Source: Engraulis encrasicolus
Lineage: Eukaryota; Chordata; Actinopteri; Clupeiformes; Engraulidae
Reading direction: 5' to 3'
DNA length: 64,000 nucleotides
Assembly: GCF_034702125.1 (NCBI RefSeq)
Contig: NC_085869.1
Location: 13,577,407-13,641,406 of the forward strand
The notes under the pieces are model-generated. The model searched no databases. It was not told the origin of the DNA and was given only the letters and a program-made list of their open reading frames with translations. Position 1 is the stretch's first letter. Each line of letters begins with the position of its first letter. Shown one piece after another: positions 43,501 through 49,500 of the stretch. A program made the position numbers and the translations under genes.

Positions 43501-46500
43501 GACTATTTTTTCCAGCAGCATGTAACCGCCTGTGATACACATGTAATGACTAACCGGGCGCGTTGACAGCAGGTTACGGAGGAGGCCAAGTGTCTTCATG
43601 AGTACGTTTGAATCTGTGTCAGAAAGGAGGAAGAACAGCTGCTCCGTTCCTAACGACTGCAGAATCTCCATCTTCACTTTCTGATCGCCTTGAAACGCCA
43701 TGTTCTACAGGAGTGAAAACATACAAAGGGAGGTTTTATTTTAAGGGGTATGCCACTATTTTGGGGCTAAATAAATCCTGTTAAATACTGTTACTACCGT
43801 ACACGTATCTTTTTAATGCAGGTGACAATGTACAGCAGTCTTTAATTCAGATGAAAAGTTGATTGGAAGTGCCTATCTGGTCTTTGGAACCAGAACTACT
43901 TATGGTTGTCAGGGGATCATATGTTTCCCCCCAGGGCAATACAAATCAATAATACATGATATTATTTTAAGTAATTATCAGGTCTTTTGATACTCTTTCT
44001 CTCCATGTCAGAATATACATACCATTAAAAGTATAGGGTGATTGTTCCTTTGATTGTGGGCAAACCAACAAAATCAGCAATGGAGGAAATACTTTTTGCT
44101 ACCAAAGTAAGAAAAGGAACCGACCATGAGTGCCCAAATACTTTTAGCTACCACAGTAAGAAAAGGCACCTACCATGAGTGCCAAAATACTTTTTCCTAC
44201 TAAAGTAAGAAGAGGTACCTACCATGAGTGCCCAAATGCCGTTAACCCTTAGAGCTGGACTTTCACTGTGTGTCAGACTACACAGTAGGTCAATGACTCC
44301 AGATTCCAGAATAGGCTGCATACAGGAGAAAAAGAAAGACACATTTTTTACAGGACAGCATACACGTCTCCCATTTTAGGCATTCCTATGCAATATTTGG
44401 TTAAACTTTACTTGACGCCGGCGTCATACGTTTGACAAAACAGCGTCATAACAGTGTCATGACACAGTCATATGGGGGACATAAACATTGTGTCAATGTC
44501 ATAAAACGTTAGGGCTCTCTTCACCATAACCGAAGGTCACTTAATGACAGTCATAAAATGTATATTGACAATGTTTATGACATCTGGATGACTGTGTTAC
44601 GACACCATTATGTCATACGCATGACGCTGGTGTCAAGTGTTACCCAAAATGTATTTGACATGTACATGAAAACTGTACTTATGGCTATGTATGAACACAC
44701 AAACTAAAAAAAAACAAAAAAAACAGAAGACCCATCATGACAAAAACCGACATAATGAATTAATTTTAAACTTTATAATATAAATATACAGTGCCCTCCA
44801 TAATTATTGGCACCCCTGGTTGAGATGTGTTAAAAGCCTTAAAATAAATTCAGTGTTTATTGCAGAAGAATACTGTCACACTGAAAATGTTAGGAAAATG
44901 TAGCCTTCAACTCAAATGAATTGTAGGAAAATAAAAAAAATCCCTGACTAAAAAACAATTATTTTTCATTAAATCACCTGTTCCACAATTATTGGCACCC
45001 TTAACAATTCCCAGGAAATAAATATAATTGAAGCATTTCTGTCATTTCTACAGTAGTTTACAAAGTTTACCAGAGTATGTAGGAACATTTAATTAGTAAT
45101 TCATCACTTCCTGTTTCCCTGGGGTATAAATATGACGTGACACCGAGGCCATTTCTCTTATCCACTCTTAAACATGGGAAAGACAAAGGAACACAGCATA
45201 CAAGTGAGGCAGATGTGCGTCGACCTTCACAGGTCAGGCAGAGGCTACAAGAAGATTGCCACTCAACTGCAGCTGCCCATATCTACTGTGAGAGGAATAA
45301 TTAAGAAGTTCAAAACAACTGGAACAGTGGTAAACAAGCCTGGACGAGGACCCAAGTTTATTTTGCCACCACGCACAGTGAGGAGGATGGTAAGAGAAAT
45401 CAAAAAGCTCCAAAGCTCTCCAAAGCTCACTGTTACAGAATTACAACAAATGGTAGCATCCTGGGGTCACAAAGTCTCCAAATCAACCATCAGGCGCTGT
45501 CTACACGCCAACAAGCTGTTTGGGAGGCATGCACGGAGAAAACCTTTCCTCACCCACAATCATAAACGTAAACGTCTGGAGTTCGCCCAGCGGTATTGGG
45601 GCTTCAACTGGGACCGTGTGCTTTGGTCAGATGAGACCAAGATTGAGCTTTTTGGCAACAAACACTCTAAGTGGGTCTGGCGTGCCACGAAAGATGCGCA
45701 TGCTGAAAAGCACCTCATACCCACTGTGAAGTATGGGGGTGGGTCAGTGATGCTGTGGGGCTGTTTCGCTTCCAAAGGCCCTGGGAAGCTTGTTAGGGTG
45801 CATGGCATCATGAATGCTTTGAAATACCAGGACATTTTAAATCAAAATCTGTTGCCCTCTGCCAAAAAGCTGAAGATGGGTCGTCACTGGGTCTTTCAGC
45901 AAGACAATGACCCTAAACATACGGCCAAATCTACACAGAAATGGTTAACCAGACACAAAATCAAGCTCCTCCCATGGCCATCTCAGTCCCCAGACCTCAA
46001 CCCCATTGAGAACCTGTGGGGTGAGCTGAAGAGGAGAGTACAGAGGAGAGGACCCAGGTCTCTGGATGATTTAGAGAGATTCTGCAAAGAGGAATGGCTG
46101 AAGATCCCTCTTTCTGTCTTTTCCCATCTTGTGAAACATTATAGGAGAAGATTAGGTGCTGTTTTGTTGGCAAAAGGGGGTTGTACAAAATATTAACAAC
46201 AGGGGTGCTAATAATTGTGACACACATTATTTGATGTCAAATAATTATTTCTTTATGTGGGATTTTTTCCCCACTGAATAAATGCACTTGTATTGAAGGT
46301 TGGATTTTTCTCTTTTTTTCCATTAAGGTCCCATATTATTTAGAGAAAAATAATAATAATTGGAAGCTAAAAAACACATCTCAACCAGGGGTGCCAATAA
46401 TAATGGAGGGCACTGTACATACCATTAAAAGTATAGGGTGATTGTTCCTTTGATTGTGGGCAAACCAACAAAATCAGCAATGGAGGAAATACTTTTTGCT

Positions 46501-49500
46501 ACCAAAGTAAGAAAAGGCACCGACCATGAGTGCCCAAATACTTTTTGCTACCACAGTAAGAAAAGGCACCTACCATGAGTGCCCAAATACTTTTTCCTAC
46601 TAAAGTAAGAAGAGGTACCTACCATGAGTGCCCAAATGCCGTTAACCCTTAGAGCTGGACTTTCACTGTGTGTCAGACTACACAGTAGGTCAATGACTCC
46701 AGATTCCAGAATAGGCTGCATACAGGAGAAAAAGAAAGACACATTTTTTACAGGACAGCATACACGTCTCCCATTTTAGGCATTCCTATGCAATATTTGG
46801 TTAAACTTTACTTGACGCCGGCGTCATACGTTTGACAAAACGGCGTCATAACAGTGTCATGACACAGTCATATGGGGGACATAAACATTGTGTCAATGTC
46901 ATAAAACGTTTGGGCTCTCTTCACCATAACCGAAGGTCACTTAATGACAGTCATAAAATGTATATTGACAATGTTTATGACATCTGGATGACTGTGTTAC
47001 GACACCATTATGTCATACGCATGACGCTGGTGTCAAGTGTTACCCAAAATGTATTTGACATGTACATGAAAACTGTACTTATGGCTATGTATGAACACAC
47101 AAACTAAAAAAAAACAAAAAAAACAGAAGACCCATCATGACAAAAACCGACATAATGAATTAATTTTAAACTTTATAATATAAATATAATTTACACTTAT
47201 AATTGAGATTTAGGCTGGTTCACTGCTTGACCCCGCATTGCTGCTTGCATCTAAATTGTGAAAGTTAAATTCCTTGCCTACTCCCCCTGGAGGTGTTCCA
47301 TTCCACTATTTTTAGTATGTGTTTGTTTTGGTTATTACCTGTAAATTCTACCCATAGCTTGTTCACTTAAAAGGAATTCACAGGGTTAGGATGATTGACT
47401 CGGAATTGCATTGTGTTGTTGATTTTTTTAAAGGAGTAATTTATATGAATATGAAAGACAAGCCTTACTTGAAGTACGACAGTTGTAGCTCCAAGTTATA
47501 ACTTAGGCTTTGGAATATATGCCAGTATTTGTCATAGTGGGTCATTGACATTGTATTCTAGGTAAAACGAAAGGATGGAAAATACTTCACCTCTTTGCTA
47601 GGTGAAAACTCCAAAAGCAGATTACATAGCGTGGATGATGCCATCACCAGAACTTCATCCGGTGCATTCTGTAACAACTTGGATAAATAAACAAATATAG
47701 AAATATATGAAATAATTGTAAATTGAACAGTTTAAGAATTCAAGGAGTTAATGAGGTTTATTTGTCACATGCAAAGAAGTACCGTACTGTGAAGTATTAC
47801 ATGCAGTGAAATGGCAGAAGGTGGTCAGCCTATATACTGTTCATGGTTGGCTGGGGGGGTTAATTGCTTATAATACATTTAAGGGTAGTGGGTATGGGGG
47901 TGCACAAGTGCAAAGTATATAGTGCAGTAATGATATATTACATTACATTGCACTTAGCTGACGCTTTCAAAGCTTTATTCAAAGCGACTTACAACTATTA
48001 TTTTTCAGGGTATTGGTTACAGTCCCTGGAGCAATGTGGGGTTAGGTGTCTTGCTCAAGGGCACTTCAGCCATGGATGGAGATGTAGGGAGAGGTCAAGG
48101 AAGATTCGAACCTGCAATCCCTTGAAAGACCAACTCTCTAACCACTAGGCCACGGCTGCCCCATGATAGAGTGATATAGTGAGGAATGAGTGTGTTGAGT
48201 GGTGGATGTGTGCAAAGTCTGTGAGAAGGTGAGGTTTTTTTGAAGTCCAAAGTGTTTGACGTCTAAAGGAGAGGTTTGGTGTATAGACCTTTTCCCTTGA
48301 GGTCACACGATGTCCTTGGTATGAAAATTGTCGCAACATGAATAAAATGGGCACATGTCCAATAATGTAGGGAAGACATGGTAACTAATTTTGCCATATT
48401 ATACCCCCACTGAAGGTCTGGCTGTCACGAGTCCATGTACCTGCTATAGATTTTTCAGTGTGACAGCTTTAGAACAAATGAAGTAATGTTGACCAATTTA
48501 AGTCTGGTAATACATGAAGTGAATGAGCTTCTGCAGCACAGGGCTTTCAAGATGACGGACCTTCAAGATGCAAGTTGTTGATCATCATTCGCCTGAAAAT
48601 GTTTTGGGCTAAACGGCCCTTTTCAGTGTGTAAATTACATCAAACATCTCCTTAAAATGCGTGTGTTTAAATGAAATGTGTCCCTGTAGCATCTTACCTT
48701 CATGAGAGGTTTCCATACAGCATGGTCATGAAAACTAGTTCTGAGCTGTTGCACCGATCGAGACAAACTGTGGAGACATCTAGACATGCGAGAAGGAGAA
48801 ATAGTCAGGTCAGTTGTGAGCATTTAACCCATTGTGTCCTGCAGCGACATAAGATTTGAGCAGTTTTATTAAAATGTGTGGGTATGTTAGAGCTGAATGA
48901 ACACATCCTAGTGAAGGTTCTAGCTTTTAAATGCAACTTATTTCATGTGTATATGTGCTTCAGAAGCTGAGATATTATGGTTTTAAAAGGGAGAGGGCAC
49001 CTTTCCCGAAAAAGGGCTTAGGCTAAAATGGGTTAAAGCAGTGGTTCTCAACCTTTTTTTGAACAAACGACCCTTGACCTCATCATAAGCCTGCCAACAC
49101 CCCTCTTAGTATTGAAAAATAAAGACTAATGCCCCCCAATGGGAACTAAGCCCCGCTCCCAAAATTGAGGGTCTCCCCACAGTCCCAAGACTTAAATTAG
49201 AGGATGAAAGCACTTTATCAGTACTGCCCACAGCTTGATTTCAGGTAGTTGCTGCAGTCTGCAAAAAAAAAAAAACCCTTGTGCAAGGCCCAGCCGTGGC
49301 TTTGGCTTAGTTGGCTGGGCACTGGACTGCTATGCGGGCAACCCGGGTTCGAATCCCGACCCCGGGTCATTTCCTGATCCTCACACGTCTCTCTCCCACT
49401 CATTTCCTGTCCCACTCTTCACTGTCCTGTCTAAATAAAGTTGAAAAACCCCAAAAGTACATATAAAAAACAAAAACAAAAAAACTTTGTGCAAACAAAA

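What the first reader, a model, noticed from the sequence alone, without database searches (positions are those of the whole stretch)
44016..47188. Tandem exon duplication in armc8 with a Tc1 element exactly at the junction
The order is 773 bp unit, Tc1, 773 bp unit. The offset is exactly 2400 (773 plus the 1627 bp Tc1). The unit begins and ends at TA, and Tc1 is flanked by TA on each side, the left TA belonging to the unit's end and the right TA to its start. This is what one crossover between two allelic Tc1 copies inserted at two TA sites 773 bp apart would give (left flank-unit-Tc1 joined to Tc1-unit-right flank); the reciprocal product would lack the exon. The duplicated exon is 93 bases, phase 0-0, so both copies can be used without loss of frame.
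Basis: partly seen in the sequence, partly recalled or inferred. Interest (0 to 1): 0.88.

Follow-up and report, generated by a model that had tools for sequence, protein, structure and literature searches.

The report
Exon duplicated around a Tc1 transposon
In a fish-like genome assembly, one exon of the gene armc8 appears twice with a young jumping gene sitting exactly between the copies, which probably records a small transposon-made duplication but could still be an assembly error.

Summary
The copies differ at 5 of 773 positions, none in the 93-bp phase 0-0 armc8 exon. The search of the 1.43-Gb assembly found no third copy. The Tc1 belongs to a very young family. Both unit edges are good Tc1 targets; neither outer edge has a Tc1 or CAG/CTG footprint.

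The last is less far-fetched than it looks: that junction would be the best of 123 Tc1 targets there, and 6-9 of 38 real copies sit at their local best site. Timing weakly favours units from two haplotypes or an older duplication; the Tc1 shows no mosaicism. Without reads, population data or RNA, neither the reality nor the splicing of the duplication is settled.

The parts
44016..44788 (.). Unit copy 1 (773 bp), starts and ends with TA; four of its five differences from copy 2 look derived
   Evidence: polarity from the internal 49-bp array and from relatives of the unit's inverted-repeat element
44223..44315 (-). armc8 exon, copy 1, 93 nt, phase 0-0, 31 residues
44016..44017 (.). Left TA target site (flank|unit 1); no Tc1 and no CAG/CTG footprint
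44789..46415 (+). Tc1 element at the junction, 1627 bp, transposase antisense to armc8; element positions 618-628 hold a private change with 9 bp net gain
45174..46196 (+). Intact Tc1 transposase ORF, 340 aa (HTH_SB, HTH_Tnp_Tc3_2, DDE_3)
44789..45000 (+). Left terminal inverted repeat (outer 43 bp with one mismatch; about 212 bp overall at about 69%)
46203..46415 (-). Right terminal inverted repeat
46416..47188 (.). Unit copy 2 (773 bp)
46623..46715 (-). armc8 exon, copy 2, identical to copy 1
47187..47188 (.). Right TA target site (unit 2|flank); no Tc1 and no CAG/CTG footprint
44087..44237 (.). 49-bp x 3.1 array repeating the exon's 3' end plus splice donor (also 46487-46637 in copy 2)

Best explanation
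A real tandem duplication of one armc8 exon made with the help of Tc1. Two Tc1 copies in the same orientation sat at two TA sites 773 bp apart on different homologues, and a recombination event inside Tc1 joined left flank-unit-Tc1 of one to Tc1-unit-right flank of the other. Shown: the order, the exact ends, the TA sites, the target quality, the young family, the absence of outer Tc1 copies. Inferred: that two such alleles existed, that the exchange was in trans, and that the duplication is in the animal and not only in the assembly. The duplicated exon keeps frame, so the mRNA could carry 31 extra residues; whether it does is unknown.
For: Exact TA-bounded structure. Both edges score high as Tc1 targets by a matrix built from 38 other copies (left rank 3-7, right 29-36 of about 356). 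No outer Tc1, no CAG/CTG footprint, which disfavours exchange between two copies on one chromosome followed by excision. Units differ at 5 positions while Tc1 has no certain private substitution outside one indel event in 1618 bp (0, or up to 2 if the variants at 101 and 168, shared with 2 and 1 copies, are its own): P = 0.03 to 0.21 under equal age, as expected if the units came from two haplotypes. No third copy of the unit found in the assembly. Of 39 other Tc1 copies examined none has a duplication abutting both ends, apart from one inside a TATC microsatellite.
Against: Neither parental allele nor the reciprocal exon-less product was seen (one assembly only). The Tc1 is not a visible mosaic: its markers at 101, 781 and 1134 occur together in L030 and L031, so two distinct parents are not indicated. 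The timing signal is weak and rests on five sites. The same sequence follows from three rivals.
Confidence: 0.33

Rival explanations
1. Assembly merge: the sequenced animal is heterozygous, one homologue with Tc1 at 44016 and the other with Tc1 at the site now at 47187, and the assembler joined them through Tc1.
For: Needs the same two insertions but no crossover. The 0.65% unit difference is the size of ordinary heterozygosity (inference). False heterotype duplications occur also on the same scaffold, 61-92% of the false duplications in the newer assemblies studied (passages of PMC9516828). The Tc1 has many near-identical copies, which invites false joins.
Against: No N in the 64-kb window, hence none between the copies, while that paper lists gaps between copies as typical. 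1627 bp of Tc1 is short for long reads. No haplotig with the unit found, although haplotigs may have been purged. Assembly method unknown.
Confidence: 0.25
2. Hybrid-end (alternative) transposition: one Tc1 insertion, after replication, used one end from each sister (or homologue) and inserted 773 bp away, giving the duplication and a reciprocal deletion in one transposase event.
For: Needs one insertion only. Precedents: maize Ac reversed-ends transposition gives tandem duplications ending exactly at the element (PMC3744419 Discussion). Sleeping Beauty, the nearest solved relative of this transposase, can use ends from two separate molecules in cell assays (passages of PMC3952818), and its mobilisation in mice gave local rearrangements including one tandem duplication (passages of PMC1584263). 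Non-mosaic Tc1, and an open frame of 337+ codons in 35 of 40 copies. Outer copies absent, the argument the maize paper used against NAHR.
Against: If sisters were used, units should be as young as Tc1; five differences against 0-2 is a weak contradiction. If the religated sister was the target, a CAG/CTG footprint would be expected at an outer edge; none. Sleeping Beauty did this eight-fold less often than piggyBac, and the mouse paper did not settle the mechanism and used a concatemer donor.
Confidence: 0.22
3. Duplication first, Tc1 later: a 773-bp tandem duplication formed over the 6-bp AATATA shared by both edges, diverged, and a young Tc1 then inserted at the TA of the junction.
For: The unit-unit junction would be the top-ranked of 123 TA sites in the duplicated stretch (weight 0.13-0.20); 6-9 of 38 real copies sit at the top-ranked TA within 773 bp, so the coincidence costs only about 5- to 8-fold. 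Fits the units looking older than Tc1.
Against: Still needs a coincidence, and the shared AATATA is also explained by target preference: 13.5% of 703 pairs of real insertion sites share 6 bp or more, against 2.3% of 20,000 random TA pairs.
Confidence: 0.15

Closest known systems
Tc1/mariner elements of the Sleeping Beauty-like group (DD34E)
   Same: TA flanks, inverted ends, 340-aa transposase with HTH_SB, HTH_Tnp_Tc3_2 and DDE_3
   Different: Nothing that sets it outside the family; this copy carries a private in-frame change with 9 bp net gain
Transposon-mediated tandem duplication by recombination (NAHR) between element copies
   Same: Direct duplication with an element at the junction
   Different: NAHR between two copies on one chromosome leaves three elements (stated in PMC3744419); here there is one, so the exchange would have to be between single-insertion alleles in trans
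Alternative transposition: maize Ac/Ds reversed-ends transposition, Drosophila P hybrid element insertion, Sleeping Beauty rearrangements in mice
   Same: Duplication ends exactly at a transposon end, no outer copy, no excision footprint
   Different: Natural locus in a fish-like genome, only 773 bp, reciprocal deletion not seen; the nine maize Ac duplications range from 8157 bp to about 5.3 Mb, and that study found 3 further cases among 7611 maize hAT insertions
False heterotype duplication in assemblies (PMC9516828)
   Same: Two slightly different copies close together on one scaffold
   Different: No gap between copies; joint exactly at a transposon end
dmrt1 intragenic exon duplication in the sole Solea senegalensis (PMC7605655, passages)
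   Same: Duplication inside a fish gene with a transposable element at its edge
   [quoted passage not shown] no Tc1 named

Membership tests
Tc1-like transposon (DD34E) | TA target-site duplication | tested here: met
   39 of 40 copies TA-flanked, junction copy included; the exception L053 lacks three bases at one end
Tc1-like transposon (DD34E) | Terminal inverted repeats | tested here: met
   48-nt arms at 96% (with TA), weaker to about 212 bp
Tc1-like transposon (DD34E) | Transposase domains | tested here: met
   HTH_Tnp_Tc3_2, HTH_SB, DDE_3 above cut-off; Sleeping Beauty catalytic domain 5cr4 E 2.7e-77
Tc1-like transposon (DD34E) | D, D, 34 residues, E | tested here: met
   D153, first D of DNDPKH = 244, E279, read from the translation; the script took the second D (246) and so printed a spacing of 32. 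Which D is catalytic is recalled from Sleeping Beauty
NAHR between two copies in cis | Element at both outer edges as well as the junction, or excision footprints there | tested here: not met
Exchange in trans between two single-insertion alleles | Both edges are usable target sites | tested here: met
Exchange in trans between two single-insertion alleles | Mosaic junction element | tested here: inconclusive
   No mosaicism among three linked markers; parents may have been alike
Alternative (hybrid-end) transposition | Duplication starts exactly at a transposon end at a target-site motif | tested here: met
Alternative (hybrid-end) transposition | Reciprocal deletion sharing the target site | not testable with these tools
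   needs population or pedigree data
False heterotype duplication | Gap between copies | tested here: not met
   no N in window
False heterotype duplication | Half read depth / single-copy k-mers | not testable with these tools
   no reads

The most novel reading that the evidence does not exclude
A natural, single-event hybrid-end transposition by a native, still active vertebrate Tc1 duplicated one coding exon in frame: the counterpart, in a wild vertebrate gene, of what Ac/Ds does in maize, showing that cut-and-paste transposons can make exon duplications directly.
Probability: 0.17. Interest if true: 0.6.

Novelty: new member of a known kind. Interest (0 to 1): 0.33.

Why it matters
Exon duplications are usually found too old to show how they arose (general knowledge). 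Here the breakpoints are exact and the element is young, so the mechanism can be tested by genotyping a handful of alleles in a population. If real and spliced, it would be a fresh in-frame exon duplication in ARMC8, a subunit of the CTLH/GID ubiquitin ligase complex (role recalled; structure 7nsc). If false, it is a clear example of how a heterozygous young transposon can create a spurious exon duplication.

Tried and rejected
NAHR between two copies in cis: rejected, the outer edges carry no Tc1 and no CAG/CTG footprint. A TACATA string at 44016 resembles a two-base Tc1 footprint (recalled) but also starts unit 2 next to Tc1, so it is not a mark of excision.

Mosaic Tc1: looked for and not found. 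One search did this with minus-strand copies left unturned and its counts are void; replace it.

The idea that all five unit differences are changes to A in copy 1: all five do have A in copy 1, but relatives of the unit's inverted-repeat element point to copy 2 as the changed one at 44442 (A in 28 of 37 aligned places, some loci counted in both orientations). So four of five look derived in copy 1, all transversions to A. Too few to interpret.

Counting other unit-Tc1-unit cases: 39 other copies with 1.5-kb flanks, out of 1044 first-look candidates. Four of the 40 loci (L036, L038, L039, L044) have runs of N in the flanks, L037 lies in a TATC microsatellite that abuts both ends, L055 in a tandem array. 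The copy at 444-2061 was also compared, with only 443 bp of left flank available. Whether the flanks outside the unit are single copy could not be asked: the tool was busy each time.

Papers: in the listed titles and abstract openings (3 of 3; 20 of 44; 20 of 71; 15 of 21; 15 of 234; 10 of 39; 3 of 3) I saw no report of a Tc1-made exon duplication in a fish. Only open-licence PMC papers were searched. The Discussion of PMC3744419 was read whole; of PMC8225341, PMC3952818, PMC1584263, PMC9516828, PMC7605655 and PMC13172734 only passages. The last, on spider toxins, judged transposons unlikely to have caused its intra-exon duplication. The impala paper was seen only as a citation and Gray et al. 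1996 is not held.
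Full report
What is there. The window holds a 773-bp direct repeat at 44016-44788 and 46416-47188, offset exactly 2400, with five mismatches (44118, 44146, 44184, 44442, 44511) and no indel. Between the copies, with nothing left over, lies a 1627-bp element at 44789-46415 that begins CAGTGCCCTCC, ends GGAGGGCACTG and is flanked by TA. It encodes an uninterrupted 340-aa transposase with HTH_SB, HTH_Tnp_Tc3_2 and DDE_3 domains, nearest in the PDB to Sleeping Beauty. Each unit holds one 93-nt exon on the minus strand, identical in both copies, phase 0-0, matching ARMC8 (7nsc_E). 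With peptide motifs recalled from memory (21 of 48 found) I located further armc8 exons from about 63.3 kb down to 40.5 kb in gene order; the preceding exon found lies at about 47.6 kb and the following at about 43.6 kb. Both unit edges are therefore intronic.

The genome. The tool places the window at C13:13577407-13641406 of an unnamed 1.433-Gb assembly of 1880 contigs. The unit has exactly two full-length matches among the 77 rows, these two; the other 75 fall within unit positions 359-635, an inverted-repeat element (40 of 3097 candidates were scored, best first). So no alternative haplotig was found. That it is a ray-finned fish is my inference from armc8, the Tc1 type and the genome size; no call names the species.

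The Tc1 family. The 40 best-scored of 1044 candidates, the junction copy included, are 97-100% identical to it. Among these 40 aligned copies the 39 others carry on average 2.8 private substitutions in about 1618 bp (maximum 6), and 35 of 40 keep an open frame of at least 337 codons. The family is very young and probably active (inference). The junction copy's only private change is one complex event at element positions 618-628 with 9 bp net gain, in frame (the script counts it as two substitutions plus nine inserted bases). Its other differences from the majority are shared: 101 with L030 and L031, 168 with L050, 781 and 1134 with 15 and 14 copies. Markers 101, 781 and 1134 occur together in L030 and L031, so the copy looks like one lineage, not a mosaic. 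A second copy at 444-2061, opposite orientation, belongs to another subfamily (24 substitutions from the majority; 39 other scored matches at 99%).

Target sites. A matrix from 38 other insertion sites ranks the left edge 3-7 and the right edge 29-36 of about 356 TA sites in 4.8 kb of the single-unit form, depending on matrix width. Real insertions sit in the top tenth of their neighbourhood in 28 of 38 cases, left out of the matrix one by one. So both edges are believable Tc1 targets. The outer edges carry no Tc1 and no TACAGTA/TACTGTA footprint (CAG/CTG as the Sleeping Beauty footprint from passages of PMC3952818). The maize study used the same absence against NAHR between two copies (Discussion of PMC3744419).

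Ages. Unit copies differ at 5 of 773. Three of the differences lie in the 49-bp array, whose other repeats show copy 1 to be the changed one; relatives of the inverted-repeat element point to copy 1 as changed at 44511 (T in 18 of 26 aligned places) and copy 2 at 44442 (A in 28 of 37). If units and Tc1 were equally old, five changes in 1546 bp against none in 1618 bp has P = 0.03, against two P = 0.21. This weakly favours units that already differed when Tc1 arrived: two haplotypes, or an older duplication.

Explanations. (b) Hybrid-end transposition from one insertion: known for P and Ac/Ds. Sleeping Beauty can use ends from two molecules, less often than piggyBac (PMC3952818, passages), and its mobilisation in mice gave deletions, inversions and one tandem duplication near the donor (PMC1584263, passages; mechanism not settled there). 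(c) Assembly merge of two haplotypes. (d) Duplication first by the shared AATATA, Tc1 later. I expected (d) to be excluded by the exact placement, but the junction would be the top-ranked of 123 TA sites with 13-20% of the weight, and 6-9 of 38 real copies hit their local top site, so it is penalised only about 5- to 8-fold. The shared AATATA fits (a)-(c) as well: 13.5% of 703 pairs of real sites share at least 6 bp.

Against artefact: the window has no N and the joint falls exactly on a transposon end, which needs two real insertions or a transposase event. For artefact: it needs fewer steps than (a), and false heterotype duplications are common (passages of PMC9516828). Without reads this stays open.

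Frequency. Of 39 other Tc1 copies with 1.5-kb flanks none shows a duplication abutting both ends, apart from L037, which lies in a TATC microsatellite. L055 has the last 67 bp of its left flank repeated at 663-729 and similar stretches at three other places of the right flank, as expected for an insertion into an existing tandem array. Four loci have N in the flanks. So the structure is rare among these copies, 1 of 40, and that one was the starting point, so the figure is biased upward.

Consequence. If both exons are used, the protein gains 31 residues in an armadillo-repeat region. Thirty-one residues are not a whole ARM repeat of about 42 (recalled), so a neutral insertion is not assured. 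Nothing here tests splicing.

Verdict. Observation confirmed; interpretation plausible but one of four. A good, testable, small natural example of transposon-linked exon duplication, not a new kind of system.

Noticed in passing
44087-44237 and 46487-46637: A 49-bp x 3.1 array repeats the last bases of the exon with its splice donor (CTCATG|GTAGGT), giving donor-like sites 49 and 98 bp downstream in the intron (the second GTCGGT); using them would add 49 or 98 nt and shift the frame.
   Followed up: partly
444-2061: Second Tc1 copy in the window, opposite orientation, TA-flanked, 97.7% identical, open 337-aa transposase, a different young subfamily with 39 other scored matches at 99%.
   Followed up: partly
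44118, 44146, 44184, 44442, 44511: At all five unit differences copy 1 has A; four look like derived transversions to A in copy 1.
   Followed up: partly
45406-45416: Private templated duplication (CTCCAAAGCT repeated) in the junction Tc1's transposase gene, in frame, three extra residues; absent in the 39 other aligned copies and in the copy at 444-2061.
   Followed up: partly
44391-44638: Inverted-repeat (MITE-like) element inside the unit with many relatives genome-wide (75 rows).
   Followed up: no
50920-51688: Tandem array of diverged units between armc8 exons located at about 50.3-50.5 and 53.2-53.4 kb.
   Followed up: no
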